This document shows, piece after piece, positions 1,673 to 42,528 of a stretch of DNA of 64,000 nucleotides. The notes under the pieces were generated by a model. That model searched no databases, was not told where the DNA came from, and saw only the letters and a program-made list of their open reading frames with translations. This stretch comes from Koleobacter methoxysyntrophicus (GTDB lineage Bacteria > Bacillota > Thermosediminibacteria > Koleobacterales > Koleobacteraceae), in the NCBI RefSeq assembly GCF_017301615.1, contig NZ_CP059066.1, positions 744,001-808,000 of the forward strand, in the 5' to 3' direction. The position numbers were made by a program, and so were the translations under genes. Position 1 is the first letter of the stretch. The number at the start of each line of letters is the position of its first letter.

Positions 1673-3379
1673 TTGAAATCAATCAAGGTTTTGATAATAG
1701 GAGCCGGAAAAGGCGGCAGTTCTATACTGAGGTTCTTCTTGAAACAAAAAGCTATCAGAATAGTCGGTGTATCGGATATAAATCTTAATGCCCCGGCAAT
1801 AAAAATTGCCCTAGAAAATAACATACCTGTTTTTTCAGATTTCAAAAAAATGCTTTTTGAAAAGCGAAATGAAACAGACGTTATTATTGAAGCAACAGGC
1901 CTTTTGTCGGTTCAGGAAGAATTAAAAAGATTAAAACCAAATCGTGTTTCCGTGTTGGAAGCCGAAGCTGCAAGTTTAATGATGACAATCATAGAAGAAA
2001 ACTTACATCTATATAAAGTTAAAGAAACTGAAGAACTGCTTCAAACCATTCTCAATTCGGCCCAAGAAGGCATACAAGTAGTGGATAAAGACGGAAAAAT
2101 TGTATATATAAACAAAGCCTTTACAAACATAACAAAAATCCCCCCAGAAGAGCGCATTAATAAGAGTGTTTTTCAAGTCTCTCCAGATGGTGCTTTATGC
2201 GAAGTCCTGAGAACTGGAAAACCTGTATTTGGAAAACCAAATATTGTTAAAGGGTCAAATATTGAGGTTGTTTCAAATGCCTCACCAATTATAGTCAACG
2301 GTAAGATTACAGGAGCCGTAGTAATTTTCCGCGACGTAACTGATATGAAAAGGATATTGAAAAAACTTAATGAAAGGGAAGAACTTATTAAAAACCTAAA
2401 GGGCAGTATAAATAATCTTACAGCTGCCAAATATACCTTCGATGACTTAATAGGAGAAAATCCAGTTTTTAAAGAAAGTATCTCAATTGCAAAGAAGGCT
2501 GCCGAAGCTGATACAACGGTCCTTCTAACAGGTGAAAGCGGTACCGGAAAGGAACTCTTTGCCCACGCCATACACAATTACAGCTTTCGTAAAAATAAGC
2601 CTTTTATAAGGATCAACTGTGCAGCCATTCCGCCAAATCTCCTTGAAAGCGAATTGTTTGGATATGAAAAAGGAGCTTTCACTGGCGCAATTGAACGGAA
2701 AATTGGGAAATTTGAACTGGCTGACGGCGGTACTATATTTTTAGATGAAATAGGTGATATGGACACAAACCTCCAGGCTAAAATTTTAAGGGTGCTCCAG
2801 GAAAAGGAAATAGAACGTTTGGGAGGCAGTAAACCTGTTAGAATAAATGTCAGGGTGATTGCAGCTACAAACCGCAATCTTATTGACATGATAAGACAGG
2901 GCAACTTCAGGGAAGACCTGTTCTACAGGCTAAATGTTTTAAACATCTCTATACCTCCTCTTCGCGAAAGGATAAATGACATTCCTAAGCTTGCCGAAAG
3001 AATAATGATGAAATTAAATCAAAAATCAGGGAAAAAAATTGTGCGAATTAGTAATGACGCTTTAAAGTCATTGATGGCGTACTCATGGCCAGGTAATGTA
3101 AGGGAACTTGAAAATGTACTTGAAAGGGCAATAACCCTTGCTGACAGCGATGTTATAGATGATAATCTAATCAGGCCCTACCTGAAACCTGATATTCATA
3201 AAAATGATGAAGAGGATATACTCCCCCTTGATGAAGTTGAAAAAAGGGTCATAGAAAGCGCATTAAAAAAATACGGTACTAGCCTGCCAGCTAAAAAAAA
3301 GATCGCAGAAAAATTAAATATCTCCCTTGCTACCCTATATAATAAGCTGAAGAAATACAGACTCAATTATAAAATTTAG
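1673..3379 (+). CDS. Sigma-54-dependent activator with N-terminal Rossmann-like domain and PAS domain
   Basis: The protein (about 568 residues) begins with a nucleotide-binding-like segment, KVLIIGAGKGGSS, and the first 110 residues look like a Rossmann fold. A PAS domain follows (about 130-235). The AAA+ sigma-54 interaction domain has GESGTGKE (Walker A, near 287), GAFTGA (near 333) and an FLDEIGDM Walker B. A Fis-type helix-turn-helix ends the protein. I prefer the TTG at 1673 because GGGGGA lies 7 bases upstream; ATG at 1658 has no clear ribosome site. Both flanking transcription units carry -24/-12 promoters, so it likely activates the divergent permease and the downstream dehydrogenase operon. 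The ligand may be a substrate bound by PAS or a nucleotide cofactor bound by the Rossmann part; that is inference. Confidence 0.85.
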   Translation: MKSIKVLIIGAGKGGSSILRFFLKQKAIRIVGVSDINLNAPAIKIALENNIPVFSDFKKMLFEKRNETDVIIEATGLLSVQEELKRLKPNRVSVLEAEAASLMMTIIEENLHLYKVKETEELLQTILNSAQEGIQVVDKDGKIVYINKAFTNITKIPPEERINKSVFQVSPDGALCEVLRTGKPVFGKPNIVKGSNIEVVSNASPIIVNGKITGAVVIFRDVTDMKRILKKLNEREELIKNLKGSINNLTAAKYTFDDLIGENPVFKESISIAKKAAEADTTVLLTGESGTGKELFAHAIHNYSFRKNKPFIRINCAAIPPNLLESELFGYEKGAFTGAIERKIGKFELADGGTIFLDEIGDMDTNLQAKILRVLQEKEIERLGGSKPVRINVRVIAATNRNLIDMIRQGNFREDLFYRLNVLNISIPPLRERINDIPKLAERIMMKLNQKSGKKIVRISNDALKSLMAYSWPGNVRELENVLERAITLADSDVIDDNLIRPYLKPDIHKNDEEDILPLDEVEKRVIESALKKYGTSLPAKKKIAEKLNISLATLYNKLKKYRLNYKI

Positions 3380-3386
3380 AACTCGC

Positions 3387-3456
3387 TTTAAGTTTTAGAA
3401 ACCTATTTATAACCATCTAACAAAATAGTTTCACTGCTTTAGTTCTAAAATTTAAA
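3387..3456. promoter_or_regulatory. Long inverted repeat upstream of the sigma-54 promoter, possible enhancer site
   Basis: TTTAAGTTTTAGAA (3387-3400) and TTCTAAAATTTAAA (3443-3456) are inverted copies with 13 of 14 bases matching, 42 bases apart. They lie about 75-145 bases upstream of the -24/-12 promoter, the usual place for activator binding. The function is inferred from position. Confidence 0.4.
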
Positions 3457-3481
3457 AACTGTATATAACGATTGTAAGAAG

Positions 3482-3505
3482 CCCTTAATATATATAAGGG
3501 TTTTT
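3482..3505 (+). terminator. Rho-independent terminator after the activator gene
   Basis: CCCTTA (3482-3487) pairs with TAAGGG (3495-3500) around an ATATATA loop and is followed by TTTTT. It separates the activator from the sigma-54 promoter that starts at 3531. Confidence 0.6.
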
Positions 3506-3530
3506 CTAATTAAAAATATAGTTTTAAAAC

Positions 3531-3546
3531 TGGCATGAATTATGCA
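3531..3546 (+). promoter_or_regulatory. sigma-54 (-24/-12) promoter of the flavin/Fe-S dehydrogenase operon
   Basis: TGGCATGAATTATGCA has GG and GC at the exact -24/-12 spacing. Transcription would start near 3557, about 58 bases before the first ATG at 3615. It lies directly after the terminator of the sigma-54 activator gene. Confidence 0.78.
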
Positions 3547-3614
3547 TTTTTCTTAAAACAGTTAATATATCAGATTATTCAGGAAAACAGTTTAAGATTA
3601 AGGGAGGAATAACA

Positions 3615-3932
3615 ATGAGGGTAAAAAACCACCCGATATTAGGGGGGGATCGGCGCATGTCAACCGTTACAATTACCGTTGACGGCAGGGAAATAAAAGC
3701 CATTGCGGGGGAACCTATTGCGGCTGCTCTCCTGGCTGCAGGAATTAAAAAGTTCAGGATGACTGAAAAAACGGGGGAACCCAGAGGGGTATTTTGTGCA
3801 ATAGGGAGATGTACGGATTGTGTTATGACCGTCAACGGCATACCGAATATAAGAACCTGTGTTACCCCTGTAGAAAACGGAATGGTAATCGAGACTCAGA
3901 AGGGCCGTGGCACATGGAGGGAAAGCAGATGA
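3615..3932 (+). CDS. (2Fe-2S)-binding small subunit, HcnA/SoxA N-terminal type
   Basis: About 105 residues with CAIGRCTDC and a further Cys 11 residues on (C-x4-C-x2-C-x11-C), the ligand pattern of the small plant-ferredoxin-like subunits found in hydrogen cyanide synthase HcnA, opine oxidases and D-hydroxyproline dehydrogenase. In those complexes it carries electrons between flavin subunits. GGGAGG stands 7 bases before the ATG at 3615; an internal ATG at 3657 with a G-rich leader is the alternative start. It is the first gene of a five-gene run with overlapping ends and sits 70 bases after a sigma-54 promoter. The substrate of the complex cannot be told from the sequence. Confidence 0.8.
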   Translation: MRVKNHPILGGDRRMSTVTITVDGREIKAIAGEPIAAALLAAGIKKFRMTEKTGEPRGVFCAIGRCTDCVMTVNGIPNIRTCVTPVENGMVIETQKGRGTWRESR

Positions 3933-5032
3933 AAAGAACCCAAGTAGCAATTGTAGGTGCGGGCCCTGCCGGCCTTGCCGCCGCCATTGAAGTTGCCCGG
4001 GCCGGCGGGAAGGTAACCCTACTGGACGAAAACAGCAGACCCGGTGGGCAGCTGTTTAAACAGATACACAAGTTTTTTGGTTCGAGGGAACACAAAGCAG
4101 GAGTAAGAGGCTTTAGAATAGGAGAACAGCTTTTAGAAGATACGAAAAGATTAGGGGTAGAAGTCCTGCTGGATTCACCGGTTTACGGCATTTTCAGTGA
4201 TTTTACCATCGGATACATAAATGCCAATAAAGAATATTCAATTAAAGCTGAAAGGATAATACTCGCAACGGGTGCTTCCGAAAATGCCCTTGCCTTTCCC
4301 GGCGGAACCCTGCCGGGTGTTATGGGTGCAGGGGCAGCCCAGACCCTGATCAATGTCCATAGGGTACTTCCGGGCAAAAGGGTCATAATGGTAGGCTCGG
4401 GGAATGTGGGACTGATCGTTTCGTATCAATTGATGCAGGCAGGGGCTGATGTAGTAGCGCTAATCGAAGCCGCCCCTGAAATAGGAGGATACGGGGTTCA
4501 TGCCAGTAAAATACGGCGGGCTGGTGTTCCTATATATACATCTCATACCATAAAAGAAGTATTCGGCAAGGATTGTGTTGAAGGTGCTGTAATTGTCCAG
4601 CTCGGCAGGGACTGGCAGCCTATTGATGGGACTGAAAAAATCTTAAAAGCTGACACCGTCTGCATTGCAGTAGGGCTTAACCCGTTATCGGAACTGGCCT
4701 GGCTGGCAGGGTGCGAATTTGCCTTTATTCCAGAACTGGGAGGGCATGTTCCCAAGCATGACTTAAACATGGAAACTACTTTAAAGGGGCTTTATGTAGC
4801 CGGCGATATTACGGGGGTCGAAGAAGCGAGTTCGGCCATGGAAGAAGGCAGGCTTGCTGGGATAGCCTGTGCGGAAAGCCTCGGCCTTTACCCTCAGGAT
4901 GAAGCAGAAAGGCTGAAGCAGGAGGTTAGAGAAAGGCTGAATGCCTTAAGGACAGGGCCTTTTGGACAGAAAAGGCGGAATGCCAAAGACAGGCTTGTAA
5001 AACTATTTCTGGGTGGTGAACAGGTTGAATAA
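3929..5032 (+). CDS. FAD/NAD(P)-binding oxidoreductase, HcnB-like alpha subunit
   Basis: A protein of 367 residues with an N-terminal FAD-binding GAGPAG motif (VAIVGAGPAGLAAA), a second nucleotide site VMVGSGNVG near residue 155, and a C-terminal GDITGVEEA segment that normally contacts FAD. This matches the alpha subunit of HcnABC-like and opine or hydroxyproline dehydrogenases. The start ATG at 3929 overlaps the stop of the 2Fe-2S gene as ATGA, with GGAGG eight bases upstream; the frame is open further upstream, but that part overlaps the preceding gene. The coupling implies equal production of the two subunits. Larger family members carry extra domains that here are separate genes. Confidence 0.85.
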   Translation: MKRTQVAIVGAGPAGLAAAIEVARAGGKVTLLDENSRPGGQLFKQIHKFFGSREHKAGVRGFRIGEQLLEDTKRLGVEVLLDSPVYGIFSDFTIGYINANKEYSIKAERIILATGASENALAFPGGTLPGVMGAGAAQTLINVHRVLPGKRVIMVGSGNVGLIVSYQLMQAGADVVALIEAAPEIGGYGVHASKIRRAGVPIYTSHTIKEVFGKDCVEGAVIVQLGRDWQPIDGTEKILKADTVCIAVGLNPLSELAWLAGCEFAFIPELGGHVPKHDLNMETTLKGLYVAGDITGVEEASSAMEEGRLAGIACAESLGLYPQDEAERLKQEVRERLNALRTGPFGQKRRNAKDRLVKLFLGGEQVE

Positions 5033-8208: not shown

Positions 8209-8697
8209 TTAGATTTTCTTATCGTTTACATAAAAATCTTTAGTTTCAGCTTCTTTATAGAATTCCCCATCTTTACTGCTTACAATCACCTTTGCTACTG
8301 CCGGATTGTTAATATATCCGTAGAAAACGGCCCCAACTTCATAATTTTCTTCAACAGGAGGATTACAAAGCAAAGACCATGACCAGCTAATAGCATCTCC
8401 TTTTTCTACTTCACCGGGGGTTGCTACCTTAACTTCCCATTTGTCATCTATCCTGGCTATCCTCGCAATATTGATTAAACCCCTTTTGCTAAGATAGAAA
8501 ACTATCGTTTCGTTGTCATTAATCCCCCGTTTATAAAGAATTTTACATAATTGCCACGTGGATGAAGCATCTTTGAACTTGTCATTTATAGTTTTCTCAA
8601 CATTTAAATCTTCAATTGTCCCCGTTTTATTTATGCAGCCGTTCATCAAAAATGCTGTAAATATAATTAAACCTATAATAAATACCATTTTTTTCAT
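8209..8697 (-). CDS. Small lipoprotein of unknown function
   Basis: A 162-residue protein with a lysine-rich start, a hydrophobic segment and an MNGC lipobox near residue 21. The rest is mixed hydrophilic with no motif I recognise. AAGGAGAG lies just upstream of the ATG. It stands in a group of minus-strand envelope genes, next to the degraded IscB element. A surface-exposed or stress-related lipoprotein is all that can be said. Confidence 0.65.
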   Translation of the reverse strand: MKKMVFIIGLIIFTAFLMNGCINKTGTIEDLNVEKTINDKFKDASSTWQLCKILYKRGINDNETIVFYLSKRGLINIARIARIDDKWEVKVATPGEVEKGDAISWSWSLLCNPPVEENYEVGAVFYGYINNPAVAKVIVSSKDGEFYKEAETKDFYVNDKKI

Positions 8698-8763
8698 TTA
8701 GATCTCTCCTTGACATAAGGCAGCAAAACTAACGTTTCTCCTTGATCAGGTTATAAGATTTAT

Positions 8764-8985
8764 TTAAAAAGCCTGGGCTGCCTGTTTCATCAATCCCATC
8801 AATAGCACTAATGCTGCAATAGAGCAATAAACATAGGTATAAACAAGAGTGCCATTATCGAAGGAAAACCCACACTTAAAAATAAAAAGACCATCATGGC
8901 TATTGATACATAGCAGTTTCCGCGCTTTTGACGGTTTATACGGCATCAACAACCGGCCATGTTTGTTGATTGCATACACTAACAT
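8764..8985 (-). pseudogene. iscB: iscB stub (RRXRR N-terminus only), rest deleted
   Basis: The first 25 codons read MLVYAINKHGRLLMP then KPSKARKLL, the start of RRXRR-domain proteins of the IscB family (RNA-guided HNH/RuvC nucleases carried by IS200/605 elements). After KARKLL the match stops abruptly at about 8911 and the frame runs into unrelated hydrophobic sequence up to a stop at 8764. No RuvC, bridge helix or HNH domain remains, against 400-500 residues normally. The open frame should therefore be treated as a deletion remnant. The tail in another frame reads like part of a membrane protein, perhaps the other side of the deletion junction. Confidence 0.65.
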
Positions 8986-9233
8986 AAAGTGTACCTCTTT
9001 CCAGAGTTATTTGCCCTTCGCCAATGTTACCCGTGCTTGCACGTCCATATCACTGTTCCTACCCCCGGAACTATTTAGATTACGGACGATAGAGCTTCAG
9101 ACTAGGGCATCATCCGAAGGTATCATGACACAGGTAACGTAGCCCAATAGGAAGTTCGATGACCTCCCCTAGCTGAGGCTAGTCAACTCGAGGCTCTTAC
9201 AGGCCTCCGCCTCTATAGGCGGGAGTGGTTGAC
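8986..9233 (-). ncRNA. IscB omega RNA (HEARO-type)
   Basis: This 248-base stretch directly precedes the iscB start, where omega RNAs lie. Read on the minus strand it begins GTCAAC, which pairs with GTTGAC (9182-9187 on the top strand) around a CCGCC/GGCGG hairpin (9207-9222) and a GAGGCC..GAGCCTC hairpin. Further in it has a CTTCGGATGATGC segment, a CGTGC/GCACG hairpin and a CTCT-GGAA-AGAG hairpin shortly before the ATG. These features agree with my memory of the HEARO/omega RNA family; a covariance search was not run. The scaffold looks complete although its nuclease gene is not. The guide would be the bases immediately 5', from about 9250 to 9234. Confidence 0.7.
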
Positions 9234-9920
9234 CTTACTCAATTCGATTATAACAGGTCTTTCACCGTTACCGGGAGTTTTATATGTGAAGCTAATCTCG
9301 TCCCCCGGTTCTAGACCATATTTGTCAAAACCTTCTTTGATGCTGTCTCCTAATTGAAAAGCCCTTAGCGATATGCCTTCAGGGACACCGCTTACTTTGA
9401 CTTCAATAGAATTGCTGTCAATCTGCCCCATAAATCTTCCCGTATCTTTGCGAATATCGGATTCTTTTGGTTCAACATTTCCTTCAATCCCTCCAAAGAC
9501 CAGCTGTCTTCCGTCTTCAGCAATACGTACAAGAAGATGGGGATATGAAAAAGCCATAGTTACGATTTCATCTTTCCCGGGCGCATGCAGTTTGGCCTTA
9601 ACCTCGATTTCTTTTTCCCTGCCCAAAATTACTAAATTTTCAAGATAATATCCACCTGTCGGCTTTTCGCCCGCACTCAAAAGCAGGTAGCGCTCTTTAC
9701 CATCGGTAAAAGAATGGAGCCCCTCTACCTTATGATTTTCATCATACCATCCGGCAAATTCACCCTGATATAATTTTTCAAATTCTGCAGAGGGTATTTT
9801 GATAATCTCATATGTTATTTCACCCATTTCCAAATTCTTCCCTTTGTCGGTTCCGCACCCGAATAATATAACAGGTACTGCAAGCAACAAAACAAGAAGC
9901 TTCAATTTTCTGCTTAACAA
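9213..9920 (-). CDS. PrcB-like lipoprotein, 3' end altered by IscB element
   Basis: A lipoprotein (LFGC lipobox near residue 22) with LLSAGEKPTGGYYLEN near residue 80, the core motif of the PrcB C-terminal domain found in secreted or surface proteins. The likely start is TTG at 9920 with AAAGGAG eight bases upstream; GTG at 9929 touches the ribosome site. The last codons, reading VNHSRL then stop, are made of the 5' end of the omega RNA, so insertion of the element at about 9233 replaced the original C-terminus. The beta-rich body is otherwise intact. Confidence 0.75.
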   Translation of the reverse strand: MLSRKLKLLVLLLAVPVILFGCGTDKGKNLEMGEITYEIIKIPSAEFEKLYQGEFAGWYDENHKVEGLHSFTDGKERYLLLSAGEKPTGGYYLENLVILGREKEIEVKAKLHAPGKDEIVTMAFSYPHLLVRIAEDGRQLVFGGIEGNVEPKESDIRKDTGRFMGQIDSNSIEVKVSGVPEGISLRAFQLGDSIKEGFDKYGLEPGDEISFTYKTPGNGERPVIIELSKVNHSRL

Positions 9921-10009
9921 GATAACCACTCCTTTTGTCTATTATGTGTCTATTATGTTTTCTCTGTTACTGTAGACGAAAAAGGCTTCTTGTTTGTTCC
10001 AGGGTTTGA

Positions 10010-10675
10010 TTAAGCATTTAAATCCTTTTTCTTTCCCGTAACCTGGAAGATAACCCATTCCCCCAGGTTTGTTGCGTGGTCGGCAATCCTTTCTAATGCC
10101 CTTGCCGAGAACAGAAGCTGGGTAGCCTGTTTTATGGTCCTCGGGTCCTGCATCATTATGATTAGGAGTTCATTAAATATCTGCTTGTAAAGATGGTCAA
10201 TTTCATCATCATCGGCACATACCTGCCGGGCAAGCTCTGTATCTTCATGAACATAGGCATCAAGGGCATCCTTGACCATCTTCCTTGTTTTCTCCGACAT
10301 CCGCGGAATATCTATTAAGGGTTTAACATATTTCTCTCCCAGGAGCCTTATGGTAAATTTTGCAATATCCGTTGCATAATCGGACATCCTTTCAAGGTCA
10401 GTAACAATCTTTATCCCTGTAAATATTATTCTCAAATCCTTCGCAATAGGCTGCTGCCTGGCGATAAGTTTGATACACTTATCCTCAATGCTTGTTTCAA
10501 GATTATCCACTATATCATCATCTTTTATAACCTTTTCGGCAAGCTCTTTATCCTTGTTTTTCAGGGACTCAACGGCATTGAAAATCTGCTGTTCAACGAT
10601 ACTGCCCATTTTTAAAACGTCCTGATAAAGCTCATCCAGTTCCCTCTGAAAGCCGGAACGCATAGTTGATGTCAT
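10010..10675 (-). CDS. phoU: Phosphate signalling regulator PhoU
   Basis: About 221 residues, all helical, with the two PhoU repeats: the first contains DDIVDNLE and DLRIIFTGIK..DLERMSDYATDIAK, the second ADDDEIDHLYKQIF and ALERIADHATNLGEW. The paired ERxxDxA runs bind metal in known structures. PhoU links the Pst transporter to the PhoR kinase and represses the Pho response when phosphate is ample. It is the last gene of pstS-C-A-B-phoU, all on the minus strand. Confidence 0.95.
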   Translation of the reverse strand: MTSTMRSGFQRELDELYQDVLKMGSIVEQQIFNAVESLKNKDKELAEKVIKDDDIVDNLETSIEDKCIKLIARQQPIAKDLRIIFTGIKIVTDLERMSDYATDIAKFTIRLLGEKYVKPLIDIPRMSEKTRKMVKDALDAYVHEDTELARQVCADDDEIDHLYKQIFNELLIIMMQDPRTIKQATQLLFSARALERIADHATNLGEWVIFQVTGKKKDLNA

Positions 10676-42304: not shown

Positions 42305-42490
42305 CAACTTGCCTTACTGCCCGACAGGCAGGTCTCCTGGCTTACGGATCACAGCTTAACCTTCCCCTTCCCGGCTAGAGCCAGTGGTAACGGAAGGCCG
42401 CTTCCCGTTTACAGTGGCGGGACCGCTCAGGACTTACACCTGATTCCCTATTCTCCCCCTTCAAGGGGGCACCTATCAGGATAATTTTAA
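42305..42490 (-). ncRNA. Cobalamin riboswitch
   Basis: Read on the minus strand it contains GATAGGTGCC, GAATAGGGAATCAGGTG, GTCCCGCCACTGTAA and AAGCCAGGAGACCTGCC, the conserved parts including the B12 box. The total span fits the class. It sits between the 2-hydroxyacid dehydrogenase gene and cobT, upstream of a terminator. Confidence 0.93.
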
Positions 42491-42528
42491 AGTTTGTACA
42501 GCAATTATACCAAACATTCAATAAAATT

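What the first reader, a model, noticed from the sequence alone, without database searches (positions are those of the whole stretch)
8764..9233. Intact-looking IscB omega RNA with its nuclease gene deleted
The omega RNA scaffold keeps its outer pairing and inner hairpins, while iscB stops after 25 recognisable codons. An RNA that once guided a nuclease now stands alone. It may be a fossil, or it may be used by an IscB elsewhere in the genome.
Basis: partly seen in the sequence, partly recalled or inferred. Interest (0 to 1): 0.75.

Follow-up and report, generated by a model that had tools for sequence, protein, structure and literature searches.

The report
Orphan IscB guide RNA, nuclease lost
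A bacterial mobile element lost almost all of its DNA-cutting gene and its right end but kept a well-preserved guide RNA fused to the end of a host lipoprotein gene; such leftovers are common, and a complete related nuclease elsewhere in this genome could in principle still use the RNA.

Summary
Window 9233-9006 (minus) is a full-length HEARO/omega RNA (Rfam RF02033, 124.6 bits, E 2.4e-25). It is followed by 25 recognisable iscB codons (8985-8911), after which homology stops. The rest of iscB is not displaced: the genome's only other RRXRR-domain matches lie 2.2 Mb away. The scaffold keeps 57 of 65 scorable pairs, with 11-13 compensatory changes against relatives; two omega RNAs next to intact IscB keep 61 of 66. 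The left end sits inside a PrcB_C-domain lipoprotein gene, whose last native codons it replaces. The right-end hairpin that relatives carry was not found, so the remnant is probably immobile. The genome does encode an intact 440-aa IscB with its own omega RNA (73% identical), so use in trans is possible but unshown. In 399 genomes of the phylum, about 15 of 44 above-threshold HEARO RNAs have no adjacent iscB or only a stub; some are 343-395 nt RNA-only elements in several copies. Standalone omega RNAs that work with IscB have been reported. Best reading: a one-ended degenerate IscB element whose RNA has not yet decayed. Real, but a new member of a known kind.

The parts
9006..9233 (-). omega RNA (HEARO, RF02033) scaffold; the element's left end is its first base, 9233 (GTCAAC)
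   Evidence: Rfam cmscan 124.6 bits, E 2.4e-25; the left boundary coincides with the point where L012, L033 and the window stop aligning
9234..9250 (-). putative guide segment (TAATCGAATTGAGTAAG), i.e. the last native codons of the lipoprotein gene
   Evidence: position immediately 5' of the scaffold (established for IscB omega RNAs); no other site in the genome with fewer than 3 mismatches
8911..8985 (-). iscB stub, 25 codons (MLVYAINKHGRLLMPYKPSKARKLL)
   Evidence: tblastn 73% to the resident IscB and the Fervidicola IscB; RRXRR profile positions 1-23
8764..8910 (-). non-IscB sequence that prolongs the stub frame into a 73-codon chimeric ORF; origin unknown
   Evidence: no second copy in the genome, no convincing relative of the hydrophobic alternative-frame peptide, no right-end hairpin
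9213..9929 (-). PrcB_C-domain lipoprotein gene invaded by the left end; its last 6 codons and stop (VNHSRL*) come from the omega RNA left-end hairpin
   Evidence: Pfam PF14343; homologues end ..ELKKMP* or ..GIKKKP* where this one reads ..ELSK-VNHSRL*

Best explanation
An IS200/IS605-type element carrying omega RNA + iscB (no transposase gene seen beside the elements examined) inserted at the 3' end of a PrcB_C-domain lipoprotein gene, replacing its last few codons. A later deletion removed iscB after codon 25 together with the right end and the original right-hand flank. What is left is a left end plus an omega RNA, probably unable to transpose (inferred: no right end found). The RNA starts inside the lipoprotein reading frame with no terminator-like site before it, so it is probably still transcribed as the 3' end of that mRNA (inferred). 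Its guide is the host's own lipoprotein sequence, so with an IscB it would address only an allele without the insertion. The scaffold is still foldable because the loss is recent relative to its divergence from sister elements; it is most likely drifting and not maintained. Shown: RNA, stub, left end, fusion, absence of the remainder of iscB, an intact IscB elsewhere. Inferred: order of events, immobility, transcription, lack of selection.
For: HEARO hit. Continuous 73% DNA alignment through the RNA and ORF start to the resident iscB. Left end shared exactly with L012 and L033, and the right-end hairpin present in both but not found in the window. Lipoprotein tail replaced. Window omega RNA has 8 broken pairs of 65, against 5 of 66 in the two relatives with IscB. 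Stub: 6 synonymous and 6 nonsynonymous codon differences from the resident copy, whereas the resident and Fervidicola copies differ by 13 synonymous and 0 nonsynonymous (counts; Fisher P 0.005), in line with relaxed constraint. Truncated or iscB-less HEARO loci are common.
Against: Far fewer pairs are broken than if the observed substitutions fell at random (8 against about 21), which could also mean continued selection. Relative-rate tests against the resident RNA depend on the outgroup (P 0.003 to 1), so faster evolution of the orphan is not established. No orthologous locus in a congener was available to show decay directly.
Confidence: 0.7

Rival explanations
1. Working trans guide: the orphan omega RNA is transcribed with the lipoprotein mRNA, loaded by the resident intact IscB 2.2 Mb away, and directs cleavage of DNA that carries the lipoprotein 3' end without the insertion, so that repair copies the remnant in (homing or retention).
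For: An intact 440-aa IscB with RRXRR and HNH domains that aligns to solved structures such as TbaIscB and OgeuIscB is present. Its own omega RNA is 73% identical, with compensatory changes keeping the same fold. PMC9581776 states that standalone omega RNAs that can function with IscB have been found, citing Altae-Tran 2021.
Against: No target other than the locus itself within 2 mismatches in the genome and none in viral contigs for 18 nt. The remnant seems to lack a right end, so there is no excised site to cut in its own cell. Cross-recognition at 73% identity and expression are untested.
Confidence: 0.15
2. Co-opted 3' end of the lipoprotein mRNA: the compact omega RNA fold serves as a stabilising or terminating structure for that transcript, independent of any nuclease.
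For: The RNA begins inside the reading frame and supplies its stop codon; the fold is stable (-79.6 kcal/mol, z -1.96).
Against: No terminator-like site was found on this strand in 8600-10100. The fold is explained by ancestry alone, and nothing else points to co-option.
Confidence: 0.05
3. Non-autonomous RNA-only mobile element (MITE-like), as seen in other genomes of the phylum, mobilised in trans by a resident Y1 transposase.
For: G225 has three copies of a 395-nt and G138 three of a 343-nt element with little or no iscB that begin exactly at the omega RNA 5' end. This genome has six Y1 transposase genes.
Against: The window element has no detectable right end and no second copy of its downstream part; only two HEARO RNAs exist in the genome.
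Confidence: 0.06
4. Assembly error hiding a full iscB.
For: Raw reads cannot be inspected here.
Against: The genome is one 3.10 Mb contig at 100% completeness; the flanking genes are intact and no loose iscB remainder exists genome-wide.
Confidence: 0.04

Closest known systems
HEARO / omega RNA (Rfam RF02033) of IscB, OMEGA systems
   Same: Full-length covariance match, left end at the first base of the RNA, guide position 5' of the scaffold, iscB start right downstream
   Different: iscB is cut after 25 codons and the right end is not found
Standalone omega RNAs that can function with IscB (Altae-Tran 2021, cited in PMC9581776)
   Same: omega RNA without its own iscB in a genome that holds an intact IscB with a related RNA
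   Different: Those were reported to work with IscB; here function in trans is untested, and a stub marks a recent origin by deletion
Resident IscB element at C1:2971.5-2972.3 kb (L012) and the Fervidicola ferrireducens element (L033)
   Same: 73% identical omega RNA and ORF start, same left end
   Different: Those carry complete iscB (440 and 442 codons in the open frame) and the right-end hairpin
iscB-less 343-395 nt HEARO elements in G138 and G225
   Same: omega RNA without an intact iscB
   Different: Those are multi-copy with common boundaries, so mobile; the window remnant appears single-ended and single-copy

Membership tests
HEARO / omega RNA (RF02033) | Covariance match over the whole model above the gathering score | tested here: met
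   124.6 bits, GA 83, positions 1-211
HEARO / omega RNA (RF02033) | Consensus pairing kept with compensatory changes | tested here: met
   57 of 65 pairs; 11 and 13 double changes against two relatives
HEARO / omega RNA (RF02033) | Transcribed and processed guide RNA | not testable with these tools
   no RNA-seq available
IscB element of the IS200/IS605 superfamily | Complete iscB with RuvC and HNH domains | tested here: not met
   only 25 codons remain
IscB element of the IS200/IS605 superfamily | Defined left end | tested here: met
   GTCAAC at 9233, shared with L012 and L033
IscB element of the IS200/IS605 superfamily | Right-end hairpin | tested here: not met
   present in L012 and L033; not found next to the stub
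Standalone trans-acting omega RNA | omega RNA without adjacent nuclease gene, with an IscB of related omega RNA in the same genome | tested here: met
   intact IscB with a 73% identical omega RNA
Standalone trans-acting omega RNA | Guides that IscB to cleave DNA | not testable with these tools
   needs biochemistry

The most novel reading that the evidence does not exclude
The genome's single intact IscB is served by two omega RNAs, its own and this orphan embedded in the 3' end of a host lipoprotein gene, so that a truncated and immobile mobile-element remnant persists as a chromosomal trans guide that drives its own retention by attacking insertion-free alleles.
Probability: 0.12. Interest if true: 0.5.

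Novelty: new member of a known kind. Interest (0 to 1): 0.3.

Why it matters
It gives a clean case of how a guide RNA is orphaned from its nuclease: well-kept scaffold, short stub, and a resident IscB with a related RNA in the same genome. The phylum survey suggests that roughly a third of above-threshold HEARO RNAs lack an adjacent usable iscB, so counting HEARO hits overstates the number of working IscB systems, and it offers natural pairs for testing how far IscB accepts diverged omega RNAs in trans.

Tried and rejected
Altae-Tran 2021 and Weinberg 2009 are not held in the library, so both are known here only through other papers or from memory. Looking for a displaced remainder of iscB: none genome-wide. 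Looking for a right end in the window by hairpin, pattern and folding: none. Origin of the 8764-8910 segment: no copy in the genome, no convincing relative of its hydrophobic alternative frame (best E 0.41). Guide targets in the genome and in viral contigs: none below 3 mismatches / none. Close DNA relatives on plasmids or phages: none. Relative-rate test for faster decay of the orphan: outgroup-dependent, so not used as evidence. Terminal branch lengths of RNAs with and without iscB do not differ (P 0.26); bit scores are slightly lower without iscB (medians 114 and 129, P 0.04), but the sorting into the two classes was by hand.

Full report
What is there. Rfam's HEARO model matches window 9233-9006 on the minus strand over its full length with 124.6 bits (gathering score 83, E 2.4e-25 for the window). 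Directly downstream, from ATG 8985, 25 codons read MLVYAINKHGRLLMPYKPSKARKLL, the start of IscB. A single DNA alignment runs from the first base of the RNA into iscB of another locus in the same genome (73% of 326 nt, E 2e-51), so RNA and stub belong to one ancestral element. Protein similarity stops about 95 nt after the RNA. From 8910 on the frame continues to 8764 in sequence with no IscB similarity, no second copy in the genome and no convincing relative.

The genome. The window lies in a complete 3.10 Mb single-contig genome. One relative, G006, appears to be Fervidicola ferrireducens: its contig C13 and record NZ_LOED01000013.1 have the same length and the IscB matches coincide. The window's organism may be Koleobacter; that is my inference from genome size and the kinship labels and was not tested. 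The genome has a second HEARO RNA at 2972091-2972311 (142.4 bits), followed by an intact 440-codon IscB frame with RRXRR (4e-69) and HNH domains, alignable to TbaIscB and OgeuIscB. By eye the RuvC and HNH motifs (GIDAGSKNTG, VVEVARFD, DHIIPRSKGGTNNPTNL, HINDAIVIA) look complete. A third IscB-like gene at 3002622-3003222 is split over two frames. Six Y1 transposase genes are present.

Boundaries. Aligning the window, L012 and the Fervidicola copy L033 gives the left end: similarity begins exactly at GTCAAC, window 9233. L012 and L033 share a right-end hairpin, TCATCTCCAYCTTRTAGAAGRTGGAGACTTCTYGC, overlapping the end of iscB. Nothing like it was found near the stub. The left end lies inside a PrcB_C-domain lipoprotein gene: homologues in related genomes end in ELKKMP or GIKKKP followed by stop, whereas here ELSK is followed by VNHSRL and a stop read from the omega RNA's first hairpin.

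State of the RNA. Mapped on the Rfam structure, the window RNA forms 57 standard pairs with 8 broken and 2 gapped; the two omega RNAs with intact IscB form 61 with 5 broken and 1 gapped. Against them 11 and 13 pairs differ on both sides while still pairing. If the same substitutions fell at random in the stems, about 21 pairs would be broken. Most of that constraint can have acted before iscB was lost, so it dates the loss as recent and does not prove present use. In the stub, codon differences from the resident copy are 6 synonymous and 6 nonsynonymous, against 13 and 0 between the two intact copies (Fisher P 0.005), which hints at relaxed constraint on the protein part; the sample is 24 codons. 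Relative-rate tests on the RNA vary with the outgroup from P 0.003 to 1 and decide nothing. A nucleotide tree puts the window RNA next to the resident and Fervidicola RNAs with low support (0.6) and a longer terminal branch.

How common. In 399 genomes drawn across the phylum, 44 HEARO matches exceed the gathering score. Set against RRXRR matches in the same genomes and tblastn of the downstream DNA, 12 have no adjacent RRXRR match and 3 more (window, G114, G234a) only a stub; G195 is cut by a contig end, and in G371 the nuclease lies 1.8 kb away. The 12 include G339:C1, which keeps an internal fragment of iscB. G114 keeps the first 29 profile positions and the last about 157 residues, an internal deletion. 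G225 carries three 395-nt and G138 three 343-nt copies that begin exactly at the RNA's 5' end and have lost iscB entirely or nearly so (the G138 copies fall just below the gathering score and are not among the 44); these look like RNA-only mobile elements. The window remnant differs from them in lacking a recognisable right end. The sorting was by hand from coordinates.

Function. The presumed guide, 9234-9250, is the end of the lipoprotein gene itself. No other place in the genome matches it with fewer than 3 mismatches, and 18 nt of it are absent from viral contigs. With an IscB it would therefore address only insertion-free alleles of its own site. No terminator-like site precedes the RNA on its strand, so read-through transcription with the lipoprotein gene is likely but not shown. 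Standalone omega RNAs that can function with IscB are mentioned in PMC9581776, citing Altae-Tran 2021, so trans use by the resident IscB would not be a new principle. PMC9755519 reports that only a few HEARO nucleases lie near TnpA, in line with the absence of a transposase gene next to the elements seen here.

Verdict. I put 0.70 on a recently orphaned, one-ended remnant and 0.15 on a working trans guide. It is a new member of a known kind.

Noticed in passing
L013 (C1:2999500-3006500), about 3343-3987 minus: A divergent IscB-like gene split by one frameshift, preceded by about 258 nt that begin with the same left-end hairpin (GGTCAACTACCGCCCGCCTATAGAGGCGG) yet give no Rfam match even at E up to 1: perhaps a divergent omega RNA.
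   Followed up: partly
Genomes G225 (C49, C81, C36) and G138 (C4, C1, C15): Multi-copy 395-nt and 343-nt elements made of an omega RNA and a right end with little or no iscB; G225 has no RRXRR match at all, so its omega RNAs have no evident IscB.
   Followed up: partly
L012:1159-7501: The intact IscB element sits among genes with weak RAMP/DevR (CRISPR type) similarity and a ResIII-domain protein, and its insertion seems to have split a neighbouring gene.
   Followed up: no
window 42310-42491 minus: Cobalamin riboswitch, 129.3 bits.
   Followed up: no
G371:C3:481055-483636: HEARO RNA and IscB about 1.8 kb apart on the same strand, possibly separated by an insertion.
   Followed up: no
G006:C36 and C62, G010:C44, G200:C1, G337:C45, G338:C1, G402:C1: RRXRR proteins whose profile match spans about 600 nt instead of about 520 and which have no HEARO match beside them: a subgroup whose guide RNA may not be covered by Rfam.
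   Followed up: no
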